Source: Tersicoccus phoenicis
Lineage (GTDB): Bacteria > Actinomycetota > Actinomycetes > Actinomycetales > Micrococcaceae
DNA: 64,000 nucleotides
Assembly: GCF_001968835.1 (NCBI RefSeq)
Contig: NZ_MRDE01000026.1
Span: 1-64,000 of the forward strand
Reading direction: 5' to 3'
The translations under genes were made by a program, and so were the position numbers. Below, one piece after another: positions 5,423 to 40,683 of this stretch (position 1 is the stretch's first letter; every line of letters starts with the position of its first letter). The notes under the pieces were generated by a model. It made no database searches. It was not told where the DNA came from and saw only the letters and a program-made list of their open reading frames with translations.

Positions 5423-6901
<1,479 letters not shown>

Positions 6902-6989
6902 GCTTCTATCGTGACACCGGTCGACGTGCAACAGGGGTCCACCCACCGGCGAACGTGGCGCGGATCATACCGATCCGAGCCGCTGGAGA

Positions 6990-8387
6990 TCAGCCGACCC
7001 GCGACGGTTCCCGCCCGCCGTCGTCGATCGACTCCGGAGCCGCGCCGGCGGGGAACTCCTCGTCGAGGTAGGTGCGCTTCTTGTTCGGCAGGAAGACGAT
7101 GTACACCACCAGGGAGATGACGATCGTGATGGTCACGTAGGTGAAGAGCCACTCCTTGTGCCCGGAGCTGGAGAGCCACGAGCCGATGAACGGCACCGTG
7201 CCGCCGAACAGCGAGTTCGCGACCGCATAGCCCAGGCCCACCCCGAGGGCCCGCACCGAGGCCGGGAAGAGCTCCGCCTTGACGATCGCGCTGACCGAGG
7301 TGTAGTTCACCACGATCAGCAGGCCCGCGAGCATGAGCCAGAACGCGATGAACGGGTCCCGGACGCCGGCGAGGGTGGACATGATCGGCCACGTGAAGAC
7401 GGCCCCGAGCACCCCGAACACGATGAGTTGGGCCTTACGGCCGATCTTGTCCGAGAGCAACCCGAACAGCGGGTGCAGGAGCATGTACACGAACAATGCC
7501 CAGAAGTTGATCACCGAGGTCTGTGTCTTGGGGATCTGCGAGACGCTGTTCATGAAGTTGAGGATGTACGTCGTGTACAGGTAGAAGGCGCACGTGCCGC
7601 CCATGGTCAGGAACACGACGACGACGAACGGCTTCCAGTGCTTGGTGAAGAGCAGCTTCAGGCTGCCGGGCTCGGCGGCGCTGGTCCGGGCGCCGTGGGT
7701 CTTCGCCGCGGCGACCTGCTGCGGGGAGATGGTCTCGTCCATCGAGCGCCGCAGCCACAGGACCACGAGCGCGGCGACGGCGCCGATCGCGAACGGGATG
7801 CGCCAGCCCCACGCCTTCAGCTCCGCCTCGGCGAGCACGTTCTGGAGGATGATCAGGGTCAGCAGGGCGAGGACCTGCCCGCCGACCAGGGTGACGTACT
7901 GGAAACTGGAGAAGAAGCCGCGGCGCTTGGCGGTGGCGACCTCGGACATGTACGTGGCGGCGGTGCCGTACTCGCCGCCCACCGAGAAACCCTGGAGCAG
8001 GCGCGAGGCGTACATGAGCACGGTGGACCAGGCGCCGATCTGCGCGACGCCGGGCAGCACGGCGACGAGCAGGGAGCCGGCCGCCATCAGGGTCACGCTG
8101 AGCGTCAGCGCCGCTCGGCGGCCGCGGCGGTCGGCGTAGCGGCCGAAGAACCAGGAGCCGACCGGGCGCATCAGGAACGTCAGGGCGAACGTCAGGTACG
8201 CGTCGATCTGTGCCTGGACCGGGTCCTTGGTGCTGAAGAAGTAGGTCGCGAAGTACGCCGAGAAGGCGGCATACACGTAGAGGTCGTACCACTCGATCAG
8301 GTTCCCTGCGGAGCCCTTGAGGGTGTTGGCGATGGCGCGCCGCGTCACTGCGGCGCCAACGGCCGTCCGGGGCTGGGTGATGGTCAT
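6990..8387 (-). CDS. MFS permease, alpha-ketoglutarate/dicarboxylate (KgtP/ProP-like) type
   Basis: 465-aa MHS-family proton symporter with 12 predicted helices. Motifs are GNLIEWYDLYVYAAFSAYFA in TM1, the RPVGSWFFGRYADRRGRR loop 2-3 signature and LQGFSVGGEYGTAATYMSE in TM5, all typical of KgtP, ShiA and ProP relatives that import organic acids or osmolytes. ATG 8387 is supported by TAGCGT 7 nt upstream (leaderless-type promoter, box at 8395-8400); the longer open frame upstream is not family-like. It is divergent from a two-component/TAXI operon that probably regulates it. The substrate is inferred as a carboxylate. Confidence 0.88.
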   Translation of the reverse strand: MTITQPRTAVGAAVTRRAIANTLKGSAGNLIEWYDLYVYAAFSAYFATYFFSTKDPVQAQIDAYLTFALTFLMRPVGSWFFGRYADRRGRRAALTLSVTLMAAGSLLVAVLPGVAQIGAWSTVLMYASRLLQGFSVGGEYGTAATYMSEVATAKRRGFFSSFQYVTLVGGQVLALLTLIILQNVLAEAELKAWGWRIPFAIGAVAALVVLWLRRSMDETISPQQVAAAKTHGARTSAAEPGSLKLLFTKHWKPFVVVVFLTMGGTCAFYLYTTYILNFMNSVSQIPKTQTSVINFWALFVYMLLHPLFGLLSDKIGRKAQLIVFGVLGAVFTWPIMSTLAGVRDPFIAFWLMLAGLLIVVNYTSVSAIVKAELFPASVRALGVGLGYAVANSLFGGTVPFIGSWLSSSGHKEWLFTYVTITIVISLVVYIVFLPNKKRTYLDEEFPAGAAPESIDDGGREPSRVG

Positions 8388-8444
8388 GCCGTCGACGCTA
8401 GGGGTGACGACGGACACAGCCCAAGCCGGCGGCGGCATTCCTAA

Positions 8445-8458
8445 CACTTCCTTAAGTG
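8445..8458. promoter_or_regulatory. Palindrome in the divergent permease/two-component promoter region
   Basis: CACTT-CCTT-AAGTG lies in the 156-bp region between the divergent MFS permease and response-regulator genes, in a locally AT-richer patch. This is the expected place for an operator of the adjacent OmpR-family regulator. No consensus is known to me, so the assignment rests on position and symmetry. Confidence 0.4.
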
Positions 8459-8543
8459 AGCGCGCCGGCCGGTACTCTCGGGCGTGGACCGCGGGCAGAA
8501 CCGGACGGCGCCAGCCAGAGCAGTCAGTGGGGTGGATCGGGGC

Positions 8544-9236
8544 ATGCGGGTGTTGATCGTCGAGGACGACGACGCGATGGCGGCTGCGCTGATGGCCTCC
8601 GTGCGGCCGGCAGGACATGGTCCGGCACGCGTGAGCAGGGGCGCGGATGCCCTGCTGACGCACCGGGACCACGACCTGATCCTGCTCGACCTGGGCCTGC
8701 CGGACATGGACGGGTTGGACGTGCTCCGCAAGCTCCGCCGGGTCACCGACGCTCCGATCCTCGTCCTCACGGCTCGAGACGACGAGCGCAGTGTGGTCCT
8801 CGGCCTGCGGTCCGGTGCGGACGACTACCTCGTCAAACCGGTCAAGCTCGTGGAGCTGCTGGCCCGCATCGAGGCGGTGACCAGGCGGGTGGCACGGACC
8901 ACCGACGGCGGGACCGAGCCCCGCCGGCTCCGGATCGGCGAGGTGGACATCGACCTCGACCGGCGAGTGGCCGCCGTCGGGTCCCGCGTCCTGAGCCTCA
9001 CCGCCACCGAGTACGACCTCCTGGTGCTCCTGGCCAGGAACGCCGGCTCGGTGGTGACCCGGGAACAGATCCTCGACGCCCTGTGGGGTGACGCGTTCGT
9101 GGCCTCGTCCCGCTCCCTCGACGTCCACCTGACGGGGCTGCGGTCCAAGCTGAGGCTGCCCGGTTTCCTGATCAACGTCCGGGGCGTCGGATACCGCGTC
9201 GAGGGCGCCGCTCACGACCGGGACGGCTCGCCGTGA
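8544..9236 (+). CDS. OmpR-family response regulator (TctD-like)
   Basis: 230-aa two-component regulator. Residues 1-120 form the receiver domain: acidic pocket EDDD at 7-10, phospho-acceptor Asp49 in LLDLGLPD, Thr in LVLTARDD and Lys in DDYLVKP. The C-terminal winged helix includes LSLTATEYDLLVLLARN and VRGVGYRVE. ATG 8544 (MRVLIVEDD) is preferred over a start 20 codons upstream because the receiver strand begins there. It overlaps the kinase gene by 4 bp (GTGA), forming an operon with the kinase and a TAXI protein. Confidence 0.92.
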   Translation: MRVLIVEDDDAMAAALMASVRPAGHGPARVSRGADALLTHRDHDLILLDLGLPDMDGLDVLRKLRRVTDAPILVLTARDDERSVVLGLRSGADDYLVKPVKLVELLARIEAVTRRVARTTDGGTEPRRLRIGEVDIDLDRRVAAVGSRVLSLTATEYDLLVLLARNAGSVVTREQILDALWGDAFVASSRSLDVHLTGLRSKLRLPGFLINVRGVGYRVEGAAHDRDGSP

Positions 9237-10762
9237 GGGTGCGGGTCCTCGGGATCCTGAGCCTGTTCTCCGTCCTCATCGTCGTCGCCGTCGCCGCTTC
9301 GATCCTCACCTCGGTCAGCCGTGAGCTGACCCAGGAACTGCAGATCAACCGGGTCGCGGCACTCAATCGATTCGCGCAGCTGGCCGACGACGCGGTGAGC
9401 ACCGGGGACACGAGCCAACTCCAACGGGACATGAACCGCTACTCGCAGCTCTACGGCGAGGGCATCGTGGTCCACACACCGCAGGCGACGCTCACCTCCG
9501 GCGGCCTGAGCCCGGACCGTGCTGACGTGCGGGATTCGATCGGACGCGCGCGCCTGAACCTCGCCGACACCGCGCTCGCGCCGGTGCAGCCGTTCGGCCC
9601 CCGATCCGAGGTGATCGCCCGCTCGTTCGGGACGGCGAGCCAGGTCCTCGGCGAGGCGGCGCTCGACGTCGACCTCGGCGCGGCGCGGCAGAAGCTGCGC
9701 GAGCGCTGGCTTCTGGTCGTGCTGGCGGCCGTCGCGGGGTGGACGCTCCTGCTCCTGGGGGCCGCGCGGGTCACGGGGTGGGTCCTGCGTCCGGTCCACC
9801 GGCTCACGGACGCGGTCGCGGCGTTCGAGGAGTCCGGGCGGGCGACCCGGCTGCGGGAGGAAGGCCCACCGGAACTCCAACGGCTCAGCCGCGCCTTCTC
9901 GGCCATGGCCGAGCACGTCGCGGCGAGCATGGACTCCCAGCGCCAGCTCATCGCCGACGCCTCCCACCAGCTCCGCAACCCCGTGGGTGCTTTGCGCCTT
10001 CGGGCCGACCTGCTCGCCCTCGAACTCGACGCCCCCGCCCAGCGCGCCGCGGCGGCGGGCCTGACCCGGGAGCTGGAGCACGTCGAGGGAGTGCTCGACG
10101 GGGTGCTCCGGCTGGCGGCGGCCGAACACCGGGTGCAGGAAGGCGCGGTGACCGGGGCGGGCCTCGTGCTCGGCGAGCGCGCCCAACACGTCGACCCCTG
10201 GCCGGTCCTGCAGGAGGCGGTCGAGCGGGCCGAACCGGCCGCCGTCAGCGCCGGTGCCCGGCTCGAGCTCGCCCCTCCGCCCTCCCCGTCGCTGAGGGTG
10301 GTGAGCAACCGGTCGGATCTGGCCGACATGGTTGACGAGCTGATCGGGAATGCCGTCAAGTACGCGCCCGGAGCGACGATCCGCGTCGGCGTCCGTGCCG
10401 AGGCGGGGCGGAGTGGCGAGACGGCGCCGGGTGGGGAGGCGGTTCAGCAGGATCGCGTGGTCGCCCTCGTGGTGACGGACGACGGCCCGGGTCTGAGCGA
10501 GCAGGAGCTCGCCGCGGCGACGACGCGCTTCTGGCGCTCGCCGCAGCACAGCGCCACCCCCGGCACGGGACTCGGCCTGGCCATCGTGGCCCGGCTCGCG
10601 GAGGCGAACGGTGCCCGGCTGGTGCTCGCAACGGCCCAGCCCCACGGGCTGGTGGCCCGCGTCGAGTTCCGCGCGACGCGCCAGGTGCCTGCGTCGGGCC
10701 CTGGCTCCCCGGACGGGGACGACGAGGCGGGGCGGCACGGACGGGCTCGGCCCGATGCGTGA
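9233..10762 (+). CDS. Sensor histidine kinase (TctE-like)
   Basis: 509-aa membrane kinase. An N-terminal helix (about residues 3-25) and a second helix (about 160-182) bracket an extracytoplasmic sensor region of about 135 residues. Then come a HAMP linker, the dimerisation helix with DASHQLRNPVGALR carrying the phospho-histidine, and an ATPase domain with NAVKYAP (N box), VTDDGPGLSEQEL (G1) and GTGLGLAIVARLAEANG (G2). GTG 9233 overlaps the regulator stop. Its 3-prime end overlaps the TAXI gene by 8 bp, so sensing and ligand binding appear to be made together. Confidence 0.92.
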   Translation: MRVRVLGILSLFSVLIVVAVAASILTSVSRELTQELQINRVAALNRFAQLADDAVSTGDTSQLQRDMNRYSQLYGEGIVVHTPQATLTSGGLSPDRADVRDSIGRARLNLADTALAPVQPFGPRSEVIARSFGTASQVLGEAALDVDLGAARQKLRERWLLVVLAAVAGWTLLLLGAARVTGWVLRPVHRLTDAVAAFEESGRATRLREEGPPELQRLSRAFSAMAEHVAASMDSQRQLIADASHQLRNPVGALRLRADLLALELDAPAQRAAAAGLTRELEHVEGVLDGVLRLAAAEHRVQEGAVTGAGLVLGERAQHVDPWPVLQEAVERAEPAAVSAGARLELAPPPSPSLRVVSNRSDLADMVDELIGNAVKYAPGATIRVGVRAEAGRSGETAPGGEAVQQDRVVALVVTDDGPGLSEQELAAATTRFWRSPQHSATPGTGLGLAIVARLAEANGARLVLATAQPHGLVARVEFRATRQVPASGPGSPDGDDEAGRHGRARPDA

Positions 10763-11810
10763 CGCGCGACCGGGCCGGGCCGACGCCCGCGCGGCCGGGC
10801 CGGCCCCCGGACCCCGGGACGTGTCGGGCCCGAGCCGGCGACAGGTCCTGCGGGCGGGGCTGGCCACCGGGCTGGCCGGGTTCGTCCTCCCGGGCGCTGC
10901 CGCCTGCACCCCGGCCGCCCGCACCGACGCGATCACCGTCGCCGGCGGTGAGTCCGGCGGCTTCTACCTCGAATTCGCCACGCTCCTGGCCACGTCGCTG
11001 ACCCGCCGGGCAGTCGCGCGCACCGCCTCCGCCGTGCAGACTCAGGGCAGCCTCGAGAACATCGACCGGCTCGTGCGCGGCGAGGTGACCCTCGGCATCG
11101 CGCTCGCGGACTCCGCGGCCGACAGCGTGGCCGGCAGGTCGGCGAGCGCCGCGCCGTCATCGGCGTCGATCAGGGCCCTCGGCAAGGTCTACGAGAACTA
11201 TCTCCACTGCCTCGTGCGGGCCGACAGCGGGATCGGTGCCGTCGCCGACCTGGCGGGACGCACCGTCGGCGTCGGTGGACAGCGGTCGGGGACCTCGCTC
11301 ACGGCGCGCCGCATCCTGGAGGCGGCGGGCCTCTCCGGCGCCGACCGACAAGCCGGTCTCACCGAGCTGCCCCTCGGACTCAACCAGGGGGTCGCCGCCC
11401 TGCGGGACGGAAGGGTCGAGGGCCTCTTCTGGTCCGGCGGCCTGCCGACCGCGGCCATCACCGCGGCGGCGAAGGACACGAAGCTGCGGCTCGTCGACCT
11501 GTCCGCACTCATCGCCCCGCTCCGGGCGCGATACCAGGGGTTCTACGACCGTGTCCTCATCCAGGCCGGAACCTATCCCGGCATGCCCGCGACCTGGACC
11601 GTCGGCGTCGCCAACGTGCTGCTGTGCCGGGCCGACATGGGCGCGGACGTCGCCCGCTCCATCGTCGAACTCCTGCTGACCCGGGCGAGCGAACTGGTGC
11701 CGGCCTCCAGCCTCGGCGTGCAGTTCCTCAGCCCCGAGACCCTCATCAACACGGCGGGAGTGCCTCTGCACCCCGCGGCGGAGGACGCCTACCGGGCCTT
11801 CCACGGTTGA
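10755..11810 (+). CDS. TAXI-family (TRAP-associated) solute-binding lipoprotein
   Basis: 351-aa extracytoplasmic binding protein. A twin-arginine SRRQVLRAGL and hydrophobic stretch end at PGAAAC, so it is probably a Tat-exported lipoprotein. The mature part carries TAXI features: GGESGGFYLEFATLLA, the TQGSLENIDRLVRGEVTLGI segment, and GRTVGVGGQRSGTSLTARR. TAXI proteins bind organic acids such as glutamate or 2-oxoglutarate. No DctQM-type TRAP membrane gene is adjacent. ATG 10755 overlaps the kinase end by 8 bp, so it is probably a periplasmic sensor for the kinase or feeds the divergent permease indirectly (inference). Confidence 0.85.
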   Translation: MRDARPGRADARAAGPAPGPRDVSGPSRRQVLRAGLATGLAGFVLPGAAACTPAARTDAITVAGGESGGFYLEFATLLATSLTRRAVARTASAVQTQGSLENIDRLVRGEVTLGIALADSAADSVAGRSASAAPSSASIRALGKVYENYLHCLVRADSGIGAVADLAGRTVGVGGQRSGTSLTARRILEAAGLSGADRQAGLTELPLGLNQGVAALRDGRVEGLFWSGGLPTAAITAAAKDTKLRLVDLSALIAPLRARYQGFYDRVLIQAGTYPGMPATWTVGVANVLLCRADMGADVARSIVELLLTRASELVPASSLGVQFLSPETLINTAGVPLHPAAEDAYRAFHG

Positions 11811-15738: not shown

Positions 15739-16700
15739 CGGCCCGACCCCCCGGTGCCGACCGGAACCACTCCGCGCCCCCGGCCGCGTCACGCGCACCG
15801 CGGGCGGCGGACCGGGGGCTGCGGGATTCCTCCGCCCGGTACGACGACGTCGCGCAGCGGGCCGCCGCCGTCGTGATCGGCCGCTACTCGACGTCGTTCG
15901 GTGCCGCCAGCCGGCTGCTGGCCCCGCCGCTGCGGCGGCACGTGCGCAACATCTACGCCCTGGTCCGGGTGGCCGACGAAGCGGTGGACGGGGTCGGCGC
16001 CGGGCACGGACTCGACGACGCGGCCGTCCTCGCCGCCCTGGACGAACTGGAGGCCCAGACCGAGGCCGCGCTGCGGTCCGGGTACAGCGCCAACGTCGTC
16101 GTGCACGCTTTCGCCGTGACCGCTCGGCGCACCGGCATCGGCCCCGAGTTGACCCGCCCGTTCTTCGCCTCGATGCGCACCGACGCGCAGCGCTCCGAGC
16201 ACGACCCGACCAGCTTCGACGCCTATGTGCACGGCTCGGCCGAGGTGGTGGGGCAGATGTGCCTGCGCGCGTTCTTCGACGGCGCGCCGGTCCAGCCGGT
16301 CGAGCTCAGCGTGTTGGATGCCGGAGCGCGCCGGCTGGGTGCCGCGTTCCAGAAGGTCAACTTCCTGCGCGACGTCGGGGCGGACGTGCAGACCCTCGGG
16401 CGCCGCTACTTCCCGGGCGTGGATCCCGCGCAGTTGACCGAGACCGAGAAGCGCCGCCTGGTGGCGGACATCGACGCCGACCTGGCGGCGGCCCGCGCGG
16501 TGATCGGCCGGCTCCCCTCCGGCGCCCGTGCCGCGGTGCTCGCGGCCCACGACCTGTTCGCCGAACTGAACGCCCGGCTGCGTCGCACCCCCGCCGCCGA
16601 TCTGCTCACCACCCGGGTCAGCGTCCCGACCGGCCGGAAGGCGCGGATCGTCGCCGGTGCCGTGCTCGGTGCCCGCCGGGGCGGCCGGGGCTGGGCCTGA
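15735..16700 (+). CDS. crtB: Phytoene synthase
   Basis: Joins two GGPP molecules into the C40 compound phytoene. 321-aa squalene/phytoene-synthase-family enzyme: STSFGAASRLLAPPLRRHVR, first Asp motif VRVADEAVDG, and second motif FQKVNFLRDVGADVQTLGRR followed by YFP. GTG 15735 overlaps the crtE stop codon. The first 30 or so residues are proline- and alanine-rich and poorly conserved. Its stop shares one base with the crtI ATG. Confidence 0.93.
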   Translation: MTARPPGADRNHSAPPAASRAPRAADRGLRDSSARYDDVAQRAAAVVIGRYSTSFGAASRLLAPPLRRHVRNIYALVRVADEAVDGVGAGHGLDDAAVLAALDELEAQTEAALRSGYSANVVVHAFAVTARRTGIGPELTRPFFASMRTDAQRSEHDPTSFDAYVHGSAEVVGQMCLRAFFDGAPVQPVELSVLDAGARRLGAAFQKVNFLRDVGADVQTLGRRYFPGVDPAQLTETEKRRLVADIDADLAAARAVIGRLPSGARAAVLAAHDLFAELNARLRRTPAADLLTTRVSVPTGRKARIVAGAVLGARRGGRGWA

Positions 16701-18427
16701 TGACCACCGCCGAGGCGGACGCGGCCCGGGCCGTGCACGACATGGCCTCCGACGATGCCGCTAGTGGCGACCCTGCCGCGAAGGACCCTGCCGTTGGTGA
16801 CGCGGCCGTGCACGAGGCCACCGCCGGCGCGTCCCGGCGGGTCGCCGTCATCGGCGGCGGCATCAGCGGCCTGGCCGTCGCCGGGATGCTCGCCCGGTTG
16901 GGTCACGAGGTCACGGTGCTGGAACAGCAGGACGACGTCGGCGGCAGGGCCGGCCGGTGGTCCGCGGCCGGATTCCGGTTCGACACGGGCCCCTCCTGGT
17001 ACCTGATGCCGGACGTGTTCGACCACTGGTTCGCGCTGATGGGCTCGAGTGCCGCCGCCGAACTGGACCTCGAACGTCTGGACCCCGGTTACCGGGTGTA
17101 CTTCCGGGACGGCGGTCCGCCCGCGGACGTGCCCGCCGGCCGGGAACGGGCGATGGCGCTGTTCGAGGCGTACGAGCCCGGGGCCGGGGCGCGCCTGGGC
17201 CGGTACCTGGACTCCGCCGCCGACGCGTACCGGATGGCGCTGGCCCACTTCCTGTACACGTCGTACGCCTCGTTCCGGCCGCTGCTGAACCGGGAGGTGC
17301 TCGCCGGCCTGCCCCGGCTGGCCCGGTTGCTGACGGAGTCGCTGCAGCGCCGCGCCGCCCGCACCGTCACCGATCGCCGGCTGCGGCAGCTGCTGGGCTA
17401 CCCCGCGGTGTTCCTCGCCTCCGCGCCGGACCGGACGCCCAGCCTCTACCACCTGCTCTCCCACCTGGACCTGCAGGACGGCGTCTTCTACCCGCGGGGC
17501 GGCTTCGCCGCGCTGATCGACGCCGTCGAGCGGCTCAGTCGGCAGGCCGGTGCCCGGATCCGGACCGGTGCCACGGTCACCGAGATCACCACCGAGCCCA
17601 CCGGGGGCCGGCGCCGGCACCGGGTCACCGGGGTGCGGTACCGGACCGCGGACGGCGTGGAGCACCGGCTCGCCGCGGACGCCGTGATCAGCGCGGCGGA
17701 TCTGCACCACACCGAGACGACGCTGCTGCCGCGGGCCCTGCAGACCCTGCCCGAACCGTCCTGGCGGCGCCGTCTGCCCGGCCCCGGTGCCATCCTGCTG
17801 CTGCTCGGTGTGCGCGGCGAACTGCCGCAGCTGGCGCACCACACCCTGGTGTTCACCGAGGACTGGGACGCCAACTTCGCCGCCATCTTCGGCCGCGACC
17901 GGCACGTCCCCGACCCCGCCTCGATGTACGTGTCCCGGACGTCGGCCACCGACCCGACGGCGGCGCCGCCCGGCCACGAGAACCTGTTCGTGCTGGTGCC
18001 GGTGCCCGCCGACCCCGGCATCGGCCGCGGCGGGATCGACGGCGCCGGGGACCCCGACCTGGAGGCCGCCGCGGACCGGGTGATCGCCCAGCTGGCCACC
18101 GACCTGGACGTGCCCGACCTCGCGGAGCGGATCGTCGTGCGCCGGGTGATCGGGCCCGGCGACTTCGCCGCCGACCTGAACGCCTGGAGCGGGACGTCGC
18201 TCGGCCCCGCGCACACGCTGCGGCAGAGTGCGTTCCTGCGCGGGCCGGTCGTCAGCTCCCGCGTGGCCGGCCTGTCCTACTGCGGGTCGAGCACCCAGCC
18301 CGGTGTGGGCCTGCCGATGTGCCTGATCAGCGCGGAGAACCTGGTCAAGCGGCTGCACGGGGACGTGTCCACGGTGCCGCTGCGGGAACCGCTCGGCCCC
18401 GGCTCGTTCCGGGTGCGGCGTCGATGA
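16700..18427 (+). CDS. crtI: Phytoene desaturase (lycopene-forming)
   Basis: FAD-dependent enzyme that introduces the double bonds converting phytoene to lycopene. 575 aa. The dinucleotide fold is RVAVIGGGISGLAVAGMLA with VTVLEQQDDVGGRAGRW, and the C terminus has the CrtI motif SSTQPGVGLPMCLISAENL. An N-terminal stretch of about 46 residues precedes the fold, rich in Ala and Asp and longer than usual; an internal start is possible, but ATG 16700 overlaps the crtB stop by one base (TGATG), which favours coupled translation. Overlaps crtYe by 4 bp. Confidence 0.93.
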   Translation: MTTAEADAARAVHDMASDDAASGDPAAKDPAVGDAAVHEATAGASRRVAVIGGGISGLAVAGMLARLGHEVTVLEQQDDVGGRAGRWSAAGFRFDTGPSWYLMPDVFDHWFALMGSSAAAELDLERLDPGYRVYFRDGGPPADVPAGRERAMALFEAYEPGAGARLGRYLDSAADAYRMALAHFLYTSYASFRPLLNREVLAGLPRLARLLTESLQRRAARTVTDRRLRQLLGYPAVFLASAPDRTPSLYHLLSHLDLQDGVFYPRGGFAALIDAVERLSRQAGARIRTGATVTEITTEPTGGRRRHRVTGVRYRTADGVEHRLAADAVISAADLHHTETTLLPRALQTLPEPSWRRRLPGPGAILLLLGVRGELPQLAHHTLVFTEDWDANFAAIFGRDRHVPDPASMYVSRTSATDPTAAPPGHENLFVLVPVPADPGIGRGGIDGAGDPDLEAAADRVIAQLATDLDVPDLAERIVVRRVIGPGDFAADLNAWSGTSLGPAHTLRQSAFLRGPVVSSRVAGLSYCGSSTQPGVGLPMCLISAENLVKRLHGDVSTVPLREPLGPGSFRVRRR

Positions 18428-18837
18428 CCGGACTGCTGTACGGGGCCTGCCTGCTGGCGGGACTCGCGTCGATGGCTGCGGTGGACGCGCGTTGGCGACT
18501 GTTCGTCTTCTCCGGTCAACCGGGACGGGCGCTGCTGACCCTGCTCGCCGGGGTCGCCTTCTTCATCGGGTGGGACGCCGCCGGCATCGGCCTCGGCGTC
18601 TTCTTCCGGGGCGAGGGACCGTACCTGAGTGGGATCGTGCTCGGGCCCGAGTTCCCGGTCGAGGAACTGCTGTTCCTGACGTTCTTGTGCTGGCTGACCA
18701 TGAACCTGTGGGTGCTCGGCACCCGGCTGCTGGCCACGGGCCGCGCATCCGCCGGTCCCGCCGGTCCCGCCGGTCCCGCCGGTCCCGCCGGCTCTCCTGA
18801 CGATCGACACGGTCACCGGGTGGAGCCGGGGCGATGA
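18424..18837 (+). CDS. crtYe: C50 carotenoid epsilon-cyclase subunit (lycopene-cyclase domain)
   Basis: 137-aa membrane protein with about three helices. The conserved acidic motif of heterodimeric lycopene cyclases appears as GPEFPVEELLFLTFL. CrtYe and CrtYf together close the rings of the C50 chain made by CrtEb, giving decaprenoxanthin- or sarcinaxanthin-type pigments; the subunit name follows gene order, as in Corynebacterium. The C-terminal tail contains a fourfold GPA repeat made by a 9-bp tandem repeat. Overlaps both neighbours by 4 bp. Confidence 0.85.
   Translation: MTGLLYGACLLAGLASMAAVDARWRLFVFSGQPGRALLTLLAGVAFFIGWDAAGIGLGVFFRGEGPYLSGIVLGPEFPVEELLFLTFLCWLTMNLWVLGTRLLATGRASAGPAGPAGPAGPAGSPDDRHGHRVEPGR
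18751..18786 (+). repeat. 9-bp tandem repeat (4 copies) in the crtYe tail
   Basis: Four exact copies of GCCGGTCCC encode Ala-Gly-Pro units after the last membrane segment of CrtYe. Copy-number changes would stay in frame. Confidence 0.9.
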
Positions 18838-19232
18838 CCTACACCGTACTGAACCTCGCCTTCCTGGTGGTCGCCGGCGTGTTCGCGCTGGTCGCCCACC
18901 GGATCGCCGGCCGGCGCACCGACGACGCCCCTGCCGGCCGGTCACGCGCCGCCCGCCGGCCGTGGATCCGCCGCCACCCGCGGCTGTCCGCCGCATTCGC
19001 GACCCTGGTGATCCTGCTGGTCCTGGCCACCGGGTTCGACTCGATCATCGTCGGCGTCGGGTTGGTCGCCTACGACCCGGCGCGGATCAGCGGGCTGTAC
19101 GCCGGGCTCGCACCCGTCGAGGACCTCGCCTACGTCGTCGGGGCGGTGCTCGTGCTGCCCGCGGTGTGGCGGCTGCTGGGGTCACGGAGGGATCGCCGCA
19201 GGCAACCGGGTCGAGAGCCGGGCCGTCGATGA
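18834..19232 (+). CDS. crtYf: C50 carotenoid cyclase, second subunit
   Basis: 132-aa membrane protein, partner of the preceding cyclase subunit. Three hydrophobic segments and the APVEDLAYVVG acidic motif match the CrtYd/CrtYf half of heterodimeric cyclases. ATG 18834 and the stop at 19232 overlap both neighbours by 4 bp, consistent with equal synthesis of the two subunits. The ring type (beta, gamma or epsilon) cannot be told from sequence alone. Confidence 0.83.
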   Translation: MTYTVLNLAFLVVAGVFALVAHRIAGRRTDDAPAGRSRAARRPWIRRHPRLSAAFATLVILLVLATGFDSIIVGVGLVAYDPARISGLYAGLAPVEDLAYVVGAVLVLPAVWRLLGSRRDRRRQPGREPGRR

Positions 19233-20104
19233 GCGCCGTCGCCGTGCTGCCCCGTCGGTTGCTCGCCTCCTCCCGGCCCCTGTCCTGGGTCAACACCGCC
19301 TATCCGTTCGCGGCCGCGTATCTGCTCACCGCCGGGCGGATCGACGGGACCGCCGTCGTCGGCACCCTGTTCTTCCTGATCCCCTACAACCTGGCGATGT
19401 ACGGCATCAACGACGTGTTCGACTACGAGAGCGATGCCCGCAACCCCCGCAAGGGCGGGGTGGAGGGTGCCGTCCTCGATCCCGGCGTCCACCGGGCGAC
19501 CCTGTGGGCGGCCGCGCTGACCTGCCTGCCGTTCGTCGTCTACCTGTACGCGGTGTCCGGTCCGGTGGCCGCGCTCGTGCTGACCGTGAGCCTGTTCGCG
19601 GTGCTCGCCTACAGCGCGCCCCGGCTGCGGTTCAAGGAACGGGCGTTCGTCGACTCGCTGACCTCCAGCACCCATTTCGTCTCGCCGGCGGTGTTCGGCC
19701 TGACCGTGGCGCACGCGACCTGGACGCCCTCCCTCGTCGCCCTCGCGCTCGGGTTCTTCTGCTGGGGGGTGGCCAGTCAGGCGTTCGGAGCGGTGCAGGA
19801 CATCGGGCCGGACCGGGAAGCGGGCCTGGGGTCGGTGGCCACGGTGATCGGCGCACGAGCGACGGTGTGGTTCGCGGTCGCGGTGTACGCCGTCGCCGGC
19901 GTCCTGCTGCTGTTCACGACGCCGCCGGGCCCGCTCGCCGCGCTGCTGGCGGTGCCGTACATCGCCAACGTGCTGCGGTTCCGCTCGGTCACGGACGCGA
20001 CGGCGGAGCGCACCAACGCCGGCTGGCACACGTTCCTCTGGTTGAACTACGTGACCGGGTTCCTGGTCACCCTGCTGCTCATCTGGTGGGCGATGACCCG
20101 CTGA
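19229..20104 (+). CDS. crtEb: Lycopene elongase (UbiA-type prenyltransferase)
   Basis: 291-aa integral-membrane prenyltransferase that adds C5 units to lycopene, giving C45/C50 carotenoids. UbiA hallmarks are NLAMYGINDVFDYESDARNP (NDxxDxxxD, prenyl diphosphate binding) and QDIGPDREAGLGSVATVIG for the second Asp motif; about eight helices. With crtE, B, I, Ye and Yf it completes a C50 pathway in the same order as the Corynebacterium decaprenoxanthin genes. Last gene of the operon, convergent with a DUF6328 gene. Confidence 0.9.
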   Translation: MSAVAVLPRRLLASSRPLSWVNTAYPFAAAYLLTAGRIDGTAVVGTLFFLIPYNLAMYGINDVFDYESDARNPRKGGVEGAVLDPGVHRATLWAAALTCLPFVVYLYAVSGPVAALVLTVSLFAVLAYSAPRLRFKERAFVDSLTSSTHFVSPAVFGLTVAHATWTPSLVALALGFFCWGVASQAFGAVQDIGPDREAGLGSVATVIGARATVWFAVAVYAVAGVLLLFTTPPGPLAALLAVPYIANVLRFRSVTDATAERTNAGWHTFLWLNYVTGFLVTLLLIWWAMTR

Positions 20105-23610: not shown

Positions 23611-24513
23611 CTACTGGACCGTCCGGTGCAGCCGCACCGCGTTGCGCATCGCCATGGCGACCGTCATCGGCCCCACCCGCGGGATGAACGCGCCGGCCGT
23701 GCGGGTGATGTCGTCCGCAAAGTTGCGGAACTGGGAGAAGTTGGCGCAGATGGCGCCTGGCTTGATCTCGTCCGGACCGATCGGGTCGAAGTCGCGGGAC
23801 GGCACCCCGGTGACGACGACGTCGGCCCGGGTCAGGGCCTCGTGCCGGCTGATCGAGGTCGGCTGGATGACGTGGGACTGCCGTCCGATCGCCGGGACGA
23901 ACCGGAGGGCGCCGTCGATGTCGATCGAGATCACCTCGGCGCCGTCGTTGGCCAGCATCGCCGACAGGGGTCGGCCCACGATCTCGGACCGGTTGATCAC
24001 GCACGCCGTGACGCCCTGCAGTGGGGCGTCCGTTCCCGTCCCGGCCAGGCCGGCGCGCAGCAGCAGTTTGAGCAGGGCCAGCGGGGTGCACGGCAGGATC
24101 GCCGGCCGGGTGCGGCCCTCGTCGAGATACCGGCGGTTCTCGTAGAGGTACCGGCTCCAGAAGGAGTGCATCCCCTCGACGTCCTTGCGCGGGTCCACCA
24201 GCTCGCGCAGCCAGCGGTCACCGTCGGGGCCGAGCAGCGGGTAGTAGAGGAAGACGCCGTGCGCTTCCGGGTCCGCGTTCGCGTCGCCGATCGCCCGCTC
24301 GGCGTCCGCGGGGTCCACCAGGCGCAGGTCGAAGTCGATTCCCACGGACTCGCAGCCGCGCCGGGTGTACTCCGCGTAGGTCGCGGCCGGCCCGGTCGGC
24401 TCGGCGAGCAGACCGACGATCCGCACCCGGTGGTCCAGGTCGGCCAGTTCCGCGCGGATCCGGGCCCGGTAGTCCGCCGCGAGCTCCGCCGGGTCGATGA
24501 CGGTCGCGTTCAC
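23611..24513 (-). CDS. Mtd1-type methylenetetrahydrofolate dehydrogenase (predicted monofunctional, NAD-dependent)
   Basis: 300-aa folate enzyme oxidising 5,10-methylene-THF to methenyl-THF. It resembles fungal Mtd1 far more than bacterial FolD: RYLDEGRTRPAILPCTPLAL, VINRSEIVGRPLSAMLANDG and ADVVVTGVPS match the yeast protein as I recall it. In FolD a YxxxK motif supplies the cyclohydrolase Lys; here it is Tyr46-AEY-Thr50, and the FolD Gln of VQLPLP is a Tyr (FLYYPLL). Loss of both predicts that it cannot hydrolyse methenyl-THF. GTG 24513 overlaps an FchA-type cyclohydrolase gene, which would do that step. Confidence 0.85.
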   Translation of the reverse strand: MNATVIDPAELAADYRARIRAELADLDHRVRIVGLLAEPTGPAATYAEYTRRGCESVGIDFDLRLVDPADAERAIGDANADPEAHGVFLYYPLLGPDGDRWLRELVDPRKDVEGMHSFWSRYLYENRRYLDEGRTRPAILPCTPLALLKLLLRAGLAGTGTDAPLQGVTACVINRSEIVGRPLSAMLANDGAEVISIDIDGALRFVPAIGRQSHVIQPTSISRHEALTRADVVVTGVPSRDFDPIGPDEIKPGAICANFSQFRNFADDITRTAGAFIPRVGPMTVAMAMRNAVRLHRTVQ

Positions 24514-25223
24514 CGCGGTCCCTGCGGCCCGGTGGGTCGGTGGGAGAGCGCGGGACGCAGCCGCCCGTGCGCGGCCTCGAGCCGATCCAGCGCCGCGTCC
24601 CGACGGGCGGTGAACGCCGCGCGCGGTTCCGCGGCCAGGCCGGCCAGGTTGATCTCGACGGTGTGCAGGGCGGCGTGGAACGCGCCGGCCAGGATCTCCA
24701 CCCCGGCCAGCACGTCGCTGCGTACCTGGTCGATGACCCGGTCGACGACCGTGCCGGCGAACTCCACGGTCTCCGTGATGGTCTCCGCCAACCGCAGCGG
24801 CACCTCCGTCGCGGCGGCGCCGGCCTCGGCCACCGCACGATCGCGGTCCCGCGCGGCCGCCGCGCCCTCCCGGGGCATCCGGTAGGCCCGCATCAGCGTC
24901 TCGAAGGCGACGACGTCGGCCGCGGCCGCGTCGGCCAGGGCGTCGGCGAGGGCCCGGCCGCGGCGGGCGTCGCCGTCCCAGTCGTGCCGGGGGGAGTGGT
25001 CCGGGTCCGTAGCGGCGCGGGCGGCCTTGCGAGCGGAGATGTGCACCGCCATCTGGACGAGGCCCGCACCGAGCGCCGCCGTGACCGAGGCGACGGATCC
25101 GCCGCCGGGCGTCGGGGTGGGGCCGGCCGTGCGGCGACGGAACTCGGCCAGCGGCAGGGCCCACAGGTCGTCGTGGTCGTCAGGGCTGGGGGACGCGCCA
25201 AGGGCAGCGGAGTGATCGGCCAT
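24510..25223 (-). CDS. Cyclodeaminase/methenyltetrahydrofolate cyclohydrolase family protein (FchA-like)
   Basis: 237-aa all-helical protein of the FTCD C-terminal domain family, which includes FchA methenyl-THF cyclohydrolase and formimino-THF cyclodeaminase. The N-terminal GPTPTPGGGSVASVTAALGA loop is the family signature, and a folate-site region MRAYRMPRE follows. There is no formiminotransferase domain or hut gene nearby. It overlaps the Mtd1-type dehydrogenase by 4 bp, which argues for the cyclohydrolase role. ATG 25223 lies 7 nt after TACGAT (leaderless); the ATG three codons earlier would overlap that box. Confidence 0.85.
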   Translation of the reverse strand: MADHSAALGASPSPDDHDDLWALPLAEFRRRTAGPTPTPGGGSVASVTAALGAGLVQMAVHISARKAARAATDPDHSPRHDWDGDARRGRALADALADAAAADVVAFETLMRAYRMPREGAAAARDRDRAVAEAGAAATEVPLRLAETITETVEFAGTVVDRVIDQVRSDVLAGVEILAGAFHAALHTVEINLAGLAAEPRAAFTARRDAALDRLEAAHGRLRPALSHRPTGPQGPR

Positions 25224-25441
25224 CGGCACCATCGTAGGGGAGCCGTCCCGGGTGGGTCACCGGAAAACGAACCGGCGACCGGCGATTGGACACGTCATGC
25301 ATCCGTCAGCGACGACCTCGCGGACGCCGACGACCAGATCCGGTCCGAGGGGGTCAGGACGAGCCTGAGTGCGGACGAATTGCGCCCGCTGGCACAGCGG
25401 TCTCGAGCTACGAGTCGTCGACGCGACAGACAAGATACGCT

Positions 25442-25478: not shown

Positions 25479-26072
25479 ATGAAACCGTCGGTGCCGGCGC
25501 TGACTCCGATCCTGAGGTCGGACACCCAGGGTCGACTTCTGGCGGAGCTCTACGTCAATCCCGACGAGGAGTATACGGCGACCGAGCTGGCCCGCCGAGC
25601 GGAGACCACCCTGCCGACCGCCTCGCGTGAGCTGAGCCGCATGGTCGACGCCGGCTTTCTGCTCGCTCGCGTCTCCGGCCGCAATCGCTACTTGCGAGTC
25701 AACGAGCAACACCCGCTCTACCGGCCGGTGTCGGAGATCGTCCGCTACGCCTACGGTCCGATCGCGGTCCTTGGGCCTCTCTTGGCGGCGGTGCCGGGCG
25801 TGGACGAAGCCTACGTCTATGGTTCCTGGGCGGCGCGACTCTCCGGCGAATCGGGCCCGAACCCGGAGGACATCGACGTGCTCGTCGTCGGCGACGCGGT
25901 CGACTTCACCGCGCTGGACGACGCCGCCGAGGTCGCCCGGGAGGCGCTCGGCCGCGAGGTGAATCCGCGCCCCGTGTCTCGTCGCGCATGGCGGGACCGC
26001 GACGACCTGTTCCTGCGCCACCTGCACGAGCGCCCCCTGGTCGCGATCCCCATCAAGGCGGGCACGTCGTGA
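25479..26072 (+). CDS. Winged-helix/MNT nucleotidyltransferase fusion, HEPN-module antitoxin type
   Basis: 197 aa. Residues 1-75 are a winged helix (YTATELARRAETTLPTASRE, then VSGRNRYLRVNEQHP). Residues 100-150 are a minimal nucleotidyltransferase with YGSWAARLSG and PEDIDVLVVG (GS...DxD metal site). Such proteins are antitoxins paired with HEPN RNase toxins and can act by adding AMP groups to them. The adjacent partner gene is reduced to 41 codons. The ATG lies 7 nt after TAACCT. The gene probably arrived by horizontal transfer (inference from composition and family distribution). Confidence 0.82.
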   Translation: MKPSVPALTPILRSDTQGRLLAELYVNPDEEYTATELARRAETTLPTASRELSRMVDAGFLLARVSGRNRYLRVNEQHPLYRPVSEIVRYAYGPIAVLGPLLAAVPGVDEAYVYGSWAARLSGESGPNPEDIDVLVVGDAVDFTALDDAAEVAREALGREVNPRPVSRRAWRDRDDLFLRHLHERPLVAIPIKAGTS

Positions 26073-28698: not shown

Positions 28699-28805
28699 CC
28701 GGGTCGCCCGGCGTCGAGTGTGCGGTTGGCGCAACCGGGTCGCCCGGCGTCGAGTGTGCGGTTGGCGCAACCGGGTCGCCCGGCGTCGAGTGTGCGGTTG
28801 GCGCA
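28699..28805. repeat. 36-bp tandem repeat array (three copies) with internal palindromes
   Basis: Two exact 36-bp units (28699-28734, 28735-28770) and a third complete to 35 bp (28771-28805). Each unit has two hairpin-forming palindromes: CCGGGTCGCCCGG at its start and CGGTTGGCGCAACCG across its end. An inverted copy of the unit core, CGCACACTCG, occurs at 28834-28843. The array starts 8 nt after the phosphatase stop and ends before the convergent SatD-like gene, so it may act as a transcription terminator. Confidence 0.92.
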
Positions 28806-35983: not shown

Positions 35984-36187
35984 CCCGGCGCGCGCCAGCA
36001 GGGCGGTGCGGAGGACCGTGACATCCGCCACGCTGCTGCGCTCTGAGGGAACTCGGCACCCGTCGAGTACGTCCTACACCGGTAGCGGTGCGATATTTGG
36101 CACAGACGCGACGTGTCGGCACAAGCCCGACGCGCCGCGGCGGCACAGTCGAACGGGAGGTACGGGCCGATCCGGGCTCAACCACGC

Positions 36188-38228
<2,041 letters not shown>

Positions 38229-38236
<8 letters not shown>

Positions 38237-38861
38237 CGTCCCGACGGTGGACCGCGCCGAGCGGCCCGACGACCCGGGCATGCCCGGGGCGACGGCCGGC
38301 GTCGACGAGCCGCGGATCTCCGCCGCCGTGCGGGAGATCCTGCTCGCCATCGGCGAGGACCCCGACCGGTCCGGGCTGAGAGACACGCCCGACCGGGTGG
38401 CGCGTGCCTACGCGGAGATGTTCTCCGGCCTGCACCAGGACGCCGCCGACGTGCTGGGGACGACCTTCGACCTGGACCACGAGGAACTGGTCCTGGTCAA
38501 GGACATCCCCTTCTACTCCACGTGCGAGCACCATCTCGTGCCCTTCCACGGCACCGCCCACGTGGGGTACATCCCGTCCCACGACGGCAGGGTCACCGGG
38601 CTGAGCAAACTGGCCCGGCTGGTGGAGGTCTACGCACGGCGGCCCCAGGTGCAGGAGCGGCTGACCACGCAGATTGTGGAAGCATTGGTCACGCACCTCG
38701 CACCCCGCGGCGCCATCGTCGTCGTCGAGTGCGAACACCTGTGCATGTCGATGCGCGGGGTCCGCAAGCCGGGAACGAAGACCGTCACGTCGGCGGTCCG
38801 TGGCCAGCTGCACGACCCGGCGACCCGCGCCGAAGCCATGAGCCTCATCCTGGGAAGGTAG
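38229..38861 (+). CDS. folE: GTP cyclohydrolase I
   Basis: First step of folate synthesis, GTP to dihydroneopterin triphosphate. 210 aa. The zinc and active-site motif is [15 protein letters not shown], with [20 protein letters not shown] and [17 protein letters not shown] further on. Start ATG 38229 lies inside the end of ftsH. First of four consecutive folate genes. Confidence 0.96.
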
Positions 38862-38867
38862 AACGTC

Positions 38868-39776
38868 ATGGACACACTCGGTGTCGCACCGGGCACGGGC
38901 CCCAACACCCTGCCGCTGCCGGTGATCCGCCGGGCCACCCGCCCCCGCACCGTCGCCGATCTGCCGACCGGACGCACCCTGGTGATGGGCGTCCTCAACG
39001 TCACGCCGGACTCGTTCAGCGACGGCGGTGATCACAGCAGCCACGGCGCCGCCATCGACCACGGCCTCCGGCTGCACTTCGCGGGCGCCGACATCGTCGA
39101 CGTCGGCGGCGAGTCGACCCGGCCGGGCGCCGCCGAGGTCCCCGTCGACGTCGAACTGGACCGCGTACTGCCCGTGATCACCGCCCTGGTCCGGGCCGGC
39201 GCGCTGGTCAGTGTCGACACCCGCCGGCCGGCGGTGGCGGCCGCCGCGATCGACGCCGGTGCCGTGTTCGTCAACGACGTCTCCGGGACCGACCTGCACC
39301 CCGACATGCCGGCCCTGGTCGCCGAGCGCGGGGTCCACTACGTCCTGCAGCACAGCCGTGGCGACTCCCGGACCATGGCGTCCCGCGCCCGGTACGACGA
39401 CGTCGTCGAGGAGGTCATCGGCGAGTTGGCGTCGCTGGCCGGCGGCTTCATCGAGGCCGGGGTCGCCGAGGACAAGCTGATCCTCGACCCCGGCATCGGT
39501 TTCGCGAAGGCCGGGGAACAGAACTGGCAGTTGCTGCGCTCCCTCGACCGGTTCACCGCGCTCGGCAAGAAGGTGCTGGTCGGCACCTCCCGCAAGTCGT
39601 TCCTCGGTGAGCTGCTGGCCAGCTCCGGCAAGTCCGCGCCGCCGAAGGACCGCGACGAGGCGACCGTCGCCACCACGGCCCTCGCCGCCGCCGCCGGGGC
39701 GTGGGCGGTCCGCGTGCACGACGTCAAGGCGAACCTGGACGCGGTGAAGGTGGCGGCCGCCTGGTCCGGGCGGTGA
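38868..39776 (+). CDS. folP: Dihydropteroate synthase
   Basis: Condenses the pterin diphosphate with p-aminobenzoate; target of sulfonamides. 302 aa TIM barrel. VMGVLNVTPDSFSDGG and DVGGESTRPGA are the two signature loops, with DPGIGFAKAGEQNWQLL and GTSRKSFLGEL further on. The loop usually written MHxRG is QHSRGDSRTM here, a small deviation. GGAAGG overlapping the folE stop serves as ribosome site. Confidence 0.95.
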   Translation: MDTLGVAPGTGPNTLPLPVIRRATRPRTVADLPTGRTLVMGVLNVTPDSFSDGGDHSSHGAAIDHGLRLHFAGADIVDVGGESTRPGAAEVPVDVELDRVLPVITALVRAGALVSVDTRRPAVAAAAIDAGAVFVNDVSGTDLHPDMPALVAERGVHYVLQHSRGDSRTMASRARYDDVVEEVIGELASLAGGFIEAGVAEDKLILDPGIGFAKAGEQNWQLLRSLDRFTALGKKVLVGTSRKSFLGELLASSGKSAPPKDRDEATVATTALAAAAGAWAVRVHDVKANLDAVKVAAAWSGR

Positions 39777-40141
39777 GCCGCGTGGACCTGATCACCCTCT
39801 CCGGGATCCGCGGGCGTGGCACGCACGGCGTGCTCGACGCGGAGCGGCAGCTCGGCCAGGTCTTCACCGCCGACGTCGTGCTGGAGCTCGACCTGACCGC
39901 CGCCGGCCGCGACGACGACCTGACCCGCACCGTCAACTACGCCGAAGCCGCCGAACGGGTGCACGCCCGCCTCACCGGGCCACCGGTGGCGCTGATCGAG
40001 ACGCTGACGGCGACCATCGCCGAGGACCTGCTGGCGGCCTACCCGCTGGACGCCGTCACCGTCACGGTGCACAAGCCGGCCGCTCCGATCCCGGTCCCGT
40101 TCGACGACGTCGCCGTCACCATGCGGCGCGAGCGCCGATGA
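39773..40141 (+). CDS. folB: Dihydroneopterin aldolase
   Basis: Cleaves dihydroneopterin to 6-hydroxymethyl-dihydropterin. 122 aa. SGIRGRGTHGVLDAERQLGQ with DDDLTRTVNYAEAAERVH and the C-terminal TVHKPAAPIP are family motifs. GTG 39773 overlaps folP by 4 bp; a GTG three codons later is possible. Confidence 0.94.
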   Translation: MSRVDLITLSGIRGRGTHGVLDAERQLGQVFTADVVLELDLTAAGRDDDLTRTVNYAEAAERVHARLTGPPVALIETLTATIAEDLLAAYPLDAVTVTVHKPAAPIPVPFDDVAVTMRRERR

Positions 40142-40683
40142 ACGCCGCCGGGTCGGTGAACGGGGGAAGCACCGACGCCCGCGCCGAGGCGATCCTGGCG
40201 CTGGGCGCCAACCTCGGCGACCCTACCGCGACGCTGACCGCAGCGGTCCGGGCGATCGCCGCCGAACCCGGTCTGACGGTGCTGGCGGTGTCCCCGGCAG
40301 CGGTCACCGCGCCCGTCGGGGGGCCACCCGGTCAGCCCGACTACCGCAACCTGGTGCTGCGGGTCGCCACCGGCTTGAGCCCGGAGGACCTGCTCGCCGC
40401 GTGTCACCGGATCGAGGCCCGTTTCGGCCGGGAGCGGGTGGTCCGTTGGGGCCCTCGGACCCTGGACGTCGACATCGTCACCGTCGTCACCGCCGACGGG
40501 GAGGTGCACCGCACCGACCCCGAGTTGACGCTGCCACACGCCTCCGCGGCCGGTCGCGGCTTCGTCCTCGCGCCGTGGTCGTGGATGGAGCCCGAGGCGC
40601 GGCTCGACGGCGTGCCGGTGACCGACCTGCTCGCCGCCGCACCCGACCGCGACGGCGTCCACCGGGCCGGGGACCGGCCATGA
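40138..40683 (+). CDS. folK: 2-amino-4-hydroxy-6-hydroxymethyldihydropteridine diphosphokinase
   Basis: Transfers diphosphate from ATP to the pterin alcohol for FolP. 181 aa. LALGANLGDPTATL, YRNLVLRVATGLSPEDLL and RWGPRTLDVDIVTV are the standard segments. Overlaps folB and the DUF3180 gene by 4 bp each, so folE-P-B-K are translated as a chain. Confidence 0.95.
   Translation: MNAAGSVNGGSTDARAEAILALGANLGDPTATLTAAVRAIAAEPGLTVLAVSPAAVTAPVGGPPGQPDYRNLVLRVATGLSPEDLLAACHRIEARFGRERVVRWGPRTLDVDIVTVVTADGEVHRTDPELTLPHASAAGRGFVLAPWSWMEPEARLDGVPVTDLLAAAPDRDGVHRAGDRP

What the first reader, a model, noticed from the sequence alone, without database searches (positions are those of the whole stretch)
23611..25223. 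Split one-carbon module: Mtd1-type dehydrogenase coupled to an FchA-type cyclohydrolase
Seen: the two genes overlap by GTGA and share a leaderless promoter. The dehydrogenase lacks the FolD cyclohydrolase Lys (Thr50 in YxxxT) and the FolD active-site Gln (Tyr in FLYYPLL), and its central segments match fungal NAD-dependent Mtd1 as I recall that sequence. Known: Mtd1 is monofunctional and FchA hydrolyses methenyl-THF. Inference: the pair replaces bifunctional FolD, with NAD rather than NADP as acceptor, which would favour oxidation of one-carbon units towards formate or formyl-THF.
Basis: partly seen in the sequence, partly recalled or inferred. Interest (0 to 1): 0.75.

Follow-up and report, generated by a model that had tools for sequence, protein, structure and literature searches.

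The report
Yeast-type folate dehydrogenase replacing bacterial FolD
The soil and clean-room bacterium Tersicoccus has lost the near-universal two-in-one folate enzyme FolD and instead carries two one-job enzymes in one tiny operon, the first of which is a close relative of yeast's NAD-dependent Mtd1, a kind of enzyme I could not find described in bacteria.

Summary
Observation confirmed: window 24513-23611(-) encodes a 300-aa dehydrogenase and 25223-24510(-) a 237-aa FTCD_C/FchA-family protein, overlapping by GTGA, with a conserved leaderless -10 motif. The dehydrogenase is Mtd1-type, not FolD: 195 bits to yeast Mtd1 (1EDZ) against at most 56 to any solved FolD; one clade with yeast Mtd1 (100/100) apart from all FolDs tested; Lys54->Thr, Gln98->Tyr, Asp121->Glu and an NAD-type Ser-x-Asp. 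It is the only PF02882 gene, and its partner the only PF04961 gene, in a 99.99% complete Tersicoccus genome. Two other Tersicoccus genomes also have no FolD. The ancestral purU|glyA-folD locus is present but folD has been removed cleanly. Mtd1-type genes are rare and scattered in Actinomycetota, often paired with FchA at a 4-bp overlap. Two Thermoleophilia genomes with the pair also show no FolD over the cut-off, suggesting a second replacement. Formiminotransferase is absent from Tersicoccus, so the partner is best read as a cyclohydrolase. Neither NAD use nor monofunctionality has been assayed. Oxidation as the net direction is inference, supported by sarcosine-oxidase and PurU genes elsewhere in the genome. 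Verdict: new variant of a known kind.

The parts
23611..24513 (-). Mtd1-type 5,10-methylene-THF dehydrogenase, 300 aa, GTG start; lacks the FolD Lys54/Gln98/Asp121 set (Thr50/Tyr90/Glu113)
24510..25223 (-). FTCD_C (PF04961) protein, 237 aa, most likely methenyl-THF cyclohydrolase (FchA-type)
24510..24513 (-). GTGA overlap of fchA stop and mtd1 start; 4-bp overlaps also in G424, the G547 contig, G686, G765 and G1027
25231..25236 (-). TACGAT, -10-like element 7 nt before the fchA ATG: predicted leaderless promoter of the pair, conserved in relatives

Best explanation
The two genes form a two-enzyme replacement of bifunctional FolD. The Mtd1-type enzyme oxidises 5,10-methylene-THF to 5,10-methenyl-THF, most likely with NAD+, and has no cyclohydrolase activity of its own. 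The FchA-type partner, translated just upstream in the same operon, hydrolyses methenyl-THF to 10-formyl-THF. Tersicoccus acquired the pair (or inherited it from a Micrococcaceae ancestor that did) and then lost folD from the glyA-folD operon, so the pair is now its only FolD-family route between methylene-THF and formyl-THF. Shown here: gene content, family placement, residue pattern, conserved operon, loss of folD. Inferred: the two catalytic activities, NAD preference, and a net oxidative direction, with methylene-THF from SHMT or sarcosine oxidase going to formyl-THF for purines and formyl-methionine, or on to formate through PurU or reversed Fhs.
For: Sequence: 195 bits to yeast Mtd1 against 56 or less to all solved FolDs; about 40-42% identity to yeast Mtd1. 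Tree: Mtd1-type rows including yeast form one side of a 100/100 branch against 25 FolDs, repeated with 14 Mtd1-type rows. Fold: AlphaFold model (pLDDT 81) has 1EDZ as best PDB hit, E 7.8e-26 against 2.6e-17 or worse for all others. NCBIfam: at most 71 bits on any FolD model, where curated cut-offs are 333-559; for contrast G424's glyA-linked FolD passes at 450.6 over 401. Replacement: single PF02882 and single PF04961 hit in G000; single PF02882 hit in both other Tersicoccus genomes; purU|glyA kept while folD is gone, with no tblastn remnant in L084/L089, whereas it follows glyA in G424 and G008. G686 and G765 carry the pair and no other PF02882 hit over the cut-off. Partner: no formiminotransferase in Tersicoccus or G424, so a cyclodeaminase would have no substrate supply. 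Physiology: T. phoenicis has been grown in acetate minimal medium (PMC12403811), so its formyl-THF supply must work. fhs and purU present; glyA-soxB-D-A-sdaA-purU operon present.
Against: No enzyme assay. Loss of the Lys is not proof of lost cyclohydrolase: the silkworm MTHFD K53A mutant kept cyclohydrolase kcat/Km 0.097 against 0.13 wild type (PMC6443876). The partner scores 86.6 bits on the NCBIfam FchA equivalog, below its cut-off of 275. Fhs is present, so formyl-THF could also be made from formate, and the pair need not be essential. Some relatives keep FolD beside the Mtd1-type gene (G424, G546, G547) and some Mtd1-type genes have no FchA within about 8 kb, so the pairing is common but not obligatory.
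Confidence: 0.8

Rival explanations
1. The dehydrogenase is a divergent but still bifunctional FolD that keeps cyclohydrolase activity with a changed active site; the FTCD_C neighbour does something else.
For: It belongs to the same two Pfam families as FolD. In silkworm MTHFD a Lys-to-Ala mutant kept cyclohydrolase activity (PMC6443876). Solo Mtd1-type genes exist without FchA nearby.
Against: All three positions (Lys, Gln, Asp) are changed together and in the same way as in yeast Mtd1, reported monofunctional by Barlowe and Appling 1990 (cited in PMC6443876; not read here). The pair is kept in several lineages with a 4-bp overlap. The two FolD-less lineages both have the partner.
Confidence: 0.08
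2. The partner is a formimino-THF cyclodeaminase, so the operon salvages formimino groups, and FolD function is covered by Fhs plus other enzymes.
For: PF04961 covers cyclodeaminases too, and T. maritima and FTCD cyclodeaminases are among its PDB matches. G686 and G765 have a PF02971 hit.
Against: No formiminotransferase (PF02971) in any Tersicoccus genome or in G424. The best PDB match of the partner is the entry named methenyl-THF cyclohydrolase (7VG4), 54 bits against 36. Direct coupling to a methylene-THF dehydrogenase suits a cyclohydrolase.
Confidence: 0.07
3. The Mtd1-type enzyme runs mainly in the reductive direction: formate -> Fhs -> formyl-THF -> FchA -> Mtd1 -> methylene-THF for serine and glycine synthesis.
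For: Full-length fhs in all three Tersicoccus genomes and in G686 and G765. The FchA/MtdA pair of other bacteria is used this way in engineered formate assimilation (PMC12844395).
Against: Predicted NAD rather than NADP specificity disfavours reduction in an aerobe (general biochemical knowledge). Two PurU genes in the genome, one in a sarcosine-oxidase operon, point to disposal of surplus C1 units.
Confidence: 0.15
4. The similarity to yeast Mtd1 is convergence after loss of cyclohydrolase, not common descent.
For: The yeast branch is long (2.2-2.3), its composition is unusual, and only one fungal sequence was available.
Against: Shared uninterrupted motifs outside the active site (VINRSEIVGRPLxAxLANDGAxVxSxD, ILPCTPLA, TGVPS), shared insertions absent from nearly all FolDs compared (positions 126, 131, 196-200), and 100/100 support.
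Confidence: 0.06

Closest known systems
Yeast Mtd1 (YKR080W; PDB 1EDZ/1EE9), monofunctional NAD-dependent 5,10-methylene-THF dehydrogenase
   Same: Best sequence and fold match, one clade, same Thr/Tyr/Glu active-site replacements, same Ser-x-Asp at the end of the second Rossmann strand
   Different: Bacterial, in an operon with an FchA-type gene, and in place of FolD rather than beside trifunctional C1-THF synthases; activity not assayed
Bacterial FolD (E. coli FolD, PRK14xxx NCBIfam models)
   Same: Same superfamily and domain layout; presumed same pathway step
   Different: Lys54, Gln98, Asp121 all replaced; far below curated cut-offs; separate clade; cyclohydrolase supplied by another gene
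Methylobacterium MtdA + FchA, and the clostridial FchA-'MtdA' enzymes
   Same: Same split of labour between a dehydrogenase and a cyclohydrolase; the cyclohydrolase is of the same FTCD_C family
   Different: The dehydrogenase matches no Pfam family over its cut-off outside the FolD families; MtdA is NADP-dependent and of another family (own knowledge)
NAD-dependent methylene-THF dehydrogenases of Clostridium formicoaceticum and Acetobacterium woodii (biochemically known)
   Same: Bacterial NAD-dependent methylene-THF dehydrogenases have been purified (cited in PMC7793690)
   Different: Anaerobic acetogens; their sequences were not compared here

Membership tests
Mtd1 (monofunctional NAD-dependent methylene-THF dehydrogenase) | Groups with yeast Mtd1 apart from FolD | tested here: met
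   100/100 branch, 100% of 200 bootstrap trees; only one fungal sequence in the set
Mtd1 (monofunctional NAD-dependent methylene-THF dehydrogenase) | FolD Lys, Gln, Asp replaced as in yeast Mtd1 (Thr, Tyr, Glu) | tested here: met
   Thr50, Tyr90, Glu113 in the window protein; relatives outside Tersicoccus and G424 have Ala at the first position
Mtd1 (monofunctional NAD-dependent methylene-THF dehydrogenase) | Acidic residue at the end of the second Rossmann strand (NAD type) | tested here: met
   Asp198 at the end of modelled strand 193-198, invariant in the nine Mtd1-type rows compared, yeast included; FolDs have HS[RK]T or HTGT there
Mtd1 (monofunctional NAD-dependent methylene-THF dehydrogenase) | NAD-dependent dehydrogenase activity without cyclohydrolase activity | not testable with these tools
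   needs purified protein
FolD | Tyr-x-x-x-Lys, Gln98 and Asp121 catalytic set | tested here: not met
   Lys in 24 of 25, Gln and Asp in 25 of 25 FolDs compared; none of the three in the window protein
FolD | Scores over a curated FolD model cut-off | tested here: not met
   best 71.2 bits, cut-offs 333 or more
MtdA (Methylobacterium-type) | Membership of a family other than PF00763/PF02882 | tested here: not met
   only FolD-family Pfam models match over their cut-offs
FchA / FTCD_C cyclohydrolase | PF04961 domain with PTPGGG motif and the positions kept across the family set | tested here: met
   124.4 bits over 24.5; invariant positions in alignment A6
FchA / FTCD_C cyclohydrolase | Over the NCBIfam FchA equivalog cut-off | tested here: not met
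   86.6 bits against 275; so not filed as an FchA equivalog, only as an FchA-type FTCD_C protein
FchA / FTCD_C cyclohydrolase | Cyclohydrolase rather than cyclodeaminase role | tested here: inconclusive
   no formiminotransferase in Tersicoccus or G424 favours cyclohydrolase; no assay

The most novel reading that the evidence does not exclude
A bacterial branch of the fungal Mtd1 family, usually coupled to an FchA-type cyclohydrolase, has displaced FolD at least twice in Actinomycetota (Tersicoccus and a Thermoleophilia lineage), switching the methylene-THF oxidation step from NADP to NAD; its tie to fungal Mtd1 reflects an interdomain gene transfer.
Probability: 0.5. Interest if true: 0.7.

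Novelty: new variant of a known kind. Interest (0 to 1): 0.58.

Why it matters
FolD is one of the most conserved enzymes of central metabolism and a drug target. A group of bacteria that dropped it for a yeast-like, probably NAD-using enzyme plus a separate cyclohydrolase gives a natural test of why most cells keep both steps on one protein and tie them to NADP. It also calls in question the view of Mtd1 as a purely fungal duplication with relaxed selection (PMC11064299), and gives compact new parts for formate and C1 engineering.

Tried and rejected
Looked for a second folD in the genome and for a degraded folD after glyA: none. Looked for RNA families in the window that could regulate the pair: none over gathering. 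The sigma-70 consensus scan found no promoter; the case for a leaderless start rests on the conserved -10 alone. Looked for Mtd1-type genes on plasmids: only FolD-like matches of at most 29% identity among the records listed. The cyclodeaminase reading was tested with formiminotransferase and is disfavoured in Tersicoccus. The neighbourhoods show no consistent C1 catabolic operon: serS and a diacylglycerol-kinase-family gene in Tersicoccus, an acyl-CoA-carboxylase-like gene in G424, asparaginase and an enolase-superfamily gene in G686 and G765, so guilt by association beyond the pair itself was dropped.

Full report
WHAT IS THERE. On the minus strand, 25223-24510 encodes a 237-aa FTCD_C protein and 24513-23611 a 300-aa FolD-superfamily protein, overlapping by GTGA. 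Pfam places them in PF04961 (124.4 bits) and PF00763 + PF02882 (48.4 and 56.9 bits), all over the gathering scores.

MTD1, NOT FOLD. Against all PDB sequences the dehydrogenase scores 195 bits with yeast Mtd1 (1EDZ) and at most 56 with any FolD or MTHFD. Yeast Mtd1 itself scores at most 62 bits with those. On every NCBIfam FolD model the window protein stays at 71 bits or less, with cut-offs of 333 or more. In a maximum-likelihood tree the Mtd1-type rows, yeast included, are split from 25 FolDs by a 100/100 branch; with five more bacterial members found later the split is again 100/100. Caution: yeast is a single long branch, so its place inside the Mtd1-type clade is not resolved and the direction of any transfer is open. 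An AlphaFold model from eight own and related sequences (pLDDT 81, pTM 0.80) finds 1EDZ first, E 7.8e-26, TM 0.82, then FolD/MTHFD structures at 2.6e-17 or worse.

ACTIVE SITE. Against E. coli numbering, FolD Lys54, Gln98 and Asp121 (24, 25 and 25 of the 25 FolDs compared) are Thr50, Tyr90 and Glu113 here, exactly as in yeast Mtd1. In the Thermoleophilia members the Thr is Ala; the same Ala is read in the later Actinomycetales sequences. The end of the second Rossmann strand (193-198 in the model) reads S-[IFLV]-D in the Mtd1-type rows, where FolDs read HSRT, HSKT or HTGT. An acidic residue there is the textbook sign of NAD rather than NADP (own knowledge). The loss of Lys alone would not prove loss of cyclohydrolase: silkworm MTHFD K53A kept it (PMC6443876). 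The inference rests on the whole pattern and on yeast Mtd1, described as monofunctional and NAD-dependent in the title of Barlowe and Appling 1990 (cited in PMC6443876). A recent survey, PMC11064299, says MTD1 has 'only cyclohydrolase function' but describes the dehydrogenase reaction; I take this for a slip.

REPLACEMENT OF FOLD. The protein is the only PF02882 match in the genome (99.99% complete) and in the two other Tersicoccus genomes. The partner is the only PF04961 match in G000. In relatives G424 and G008 the order is purU(-), glyA(+), folD(+). Tersicoccus keeps purU and glyA (68-81% identical to G424/G008) and the downstream ABC transporter, but an FAD-linked oxidase gene stands where folD was, and tblastn with three FolDs finds no remnant. 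So the loss is real and not an assembly gap. All 146 good Micrococcaceae genomes sampled have some member of the superfamily; only Tersicoccus and G424 have the Mtd1 type, and G424 keeps FolD as well.

DISTRIBUTION. No other Mtd1-type match appears in the listing of 397 genomes spread over the phylum. There are 6 of 396 in the order, in three genera, and 3 of 399 in the class of G546, a genome titled Solirubrobacterales, that is Thermoleophilia. The single whole-collection scan gave Tersicoccus plus two bog MAG contigs; it used two short peptide patterns, so bacteria outside Actinomycetota are not well covered. FchA-type neighbours: three Tersicoccus, G424, the G547 contig, G686, G765, G1027; no FchA within about 8 kb in G1246, G1015, G1039, G949, and none anywhere in G546. 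Overlaps are 4 bp in G000, G424, the G547 contig, G686, G765 and G1027, and 1 nt of spacing in the other two Tersicoccus. G686 and G765 have no PF02882 match over the cut-off but the Mtd1 type; G686's contig is 3.46 Mb, nearly the whole genome, so this looks like a second replacement. No completeness figure is given for either.

PROMOTER. TACGAT-N7-ATG in Tersicoccus, TATGAT-N7-ATG in G424, TATGCT or TATCGT-N8-GTG in G686, G765 and the G547 contig, with diverged flanks and no room for a ribosome-binding site. TANNNT density in the window is about 6e-4 per base. A leaderless start at 25223 is therefore likely but not measured; the upstream ATG at 25232 would overlap the -10 element.

PARTNER. 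The closest solved relative is the entry named methenyl-THF cyclohydrolase (7VG4, 54 bits), then T. maritima formimino-THF cyclodeaminase 1O5H (36 bits). It is below the NCBIfam FchA equivalog cut-off. Tersicoccus and G424 have no formiminotransferase, so a cyclodeaminase would have nothing to work on. I take it as a methenyl-THF cyclohydrolase, unproven.

HOW IT WORKS. Methylene-THF comes from SHMT and from heterotetrameric sarcosine oxidase: glyA-soxB-D-A-sdaA-purU is present. Mtd1 oxidises it, FchA hydrolyses it, and formyl-THF feeds purines and fMet or is drained by two PurU or by Fhs in reverse. NAD use would favour oxidation. Fhs also allows the reverse route, so essentiality is open. 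T. phoenicis has been grown in acetate minimal medium (PMC12403811), consistent with a working formyl-THF supply.

NOVELTY. A dehydrogenase/FchA split is known (MtdA/FchA, PMC12844395), and purified bacterial NAD-dependent methylene-THF dehydrogenases are known (cited in PMC7793690). I found no paper in the held library that describes bacterial Mtd1-type enzymes or this replacement; subscription papers are mostly not held. Hence: new variant of a known kind.

Noticed in passing
L086 (G424:C95:8000-21322) 6806-10893: A second, separate split pair in G424: an FTCD_C gene (7678-8328) next to a divergent FolD (6806-7681) in which Lys54 is Ile while Gln and Asp are kept, beside a dimethylglycine-oxidase-like gene (DAO + GCV_T) and purU: a parallel loss of the cyclohydrolase Lys where FchA is at hand.
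   Followed up: partly
L084/L089 after glyA (L084 10831-13157): An FAD-linked oxidase gene in opposite orientation occupies the place of folD in the otherwise syntenic purU|glyA|ABC-transporter region of Tersicoccus.
   Followed up: yes
window 28699-28805: Three perfect copies of a 36-bp tandem repeat just after the stop of a HAD-like hydrolase gene.
   Followed up: no
window 16259-20104: Genes that look like a C50 carotenoid cluster: phytoene desaturase, two small lycopene-cyclase subunits and a UbiA-type elongase (reading translations, no family search).
   Followed up: no
window 25479-26072: Divergent gene upstream of the pair: an HTH domain followed by what reads like a nucleotidyltransferase domain; a possible regulator of unknown role.
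   Followed up: no
window 36113-40683: Folate biosynthesis cluster (FtsH-FolE-FolP...FolK by reading) about 11 kb from the pair, not in its operon.
   Followed up: no
L038 (Acidobacteriaceae MAG BOG_194 contig, 3618 bp): The contig carries an FchA-Mtd1 pair closest to a Solirubrobacterales MAG and what reads like a Hen1-type gene; it may be an actinobacterial contig binned into an Acidobacteria MAG.
   Followed up: no
PMC11064299: The published survey states that fungal MTD1 has only cyclohydrolase function, which contradicts the reaction it then describes.
   Followed up: no
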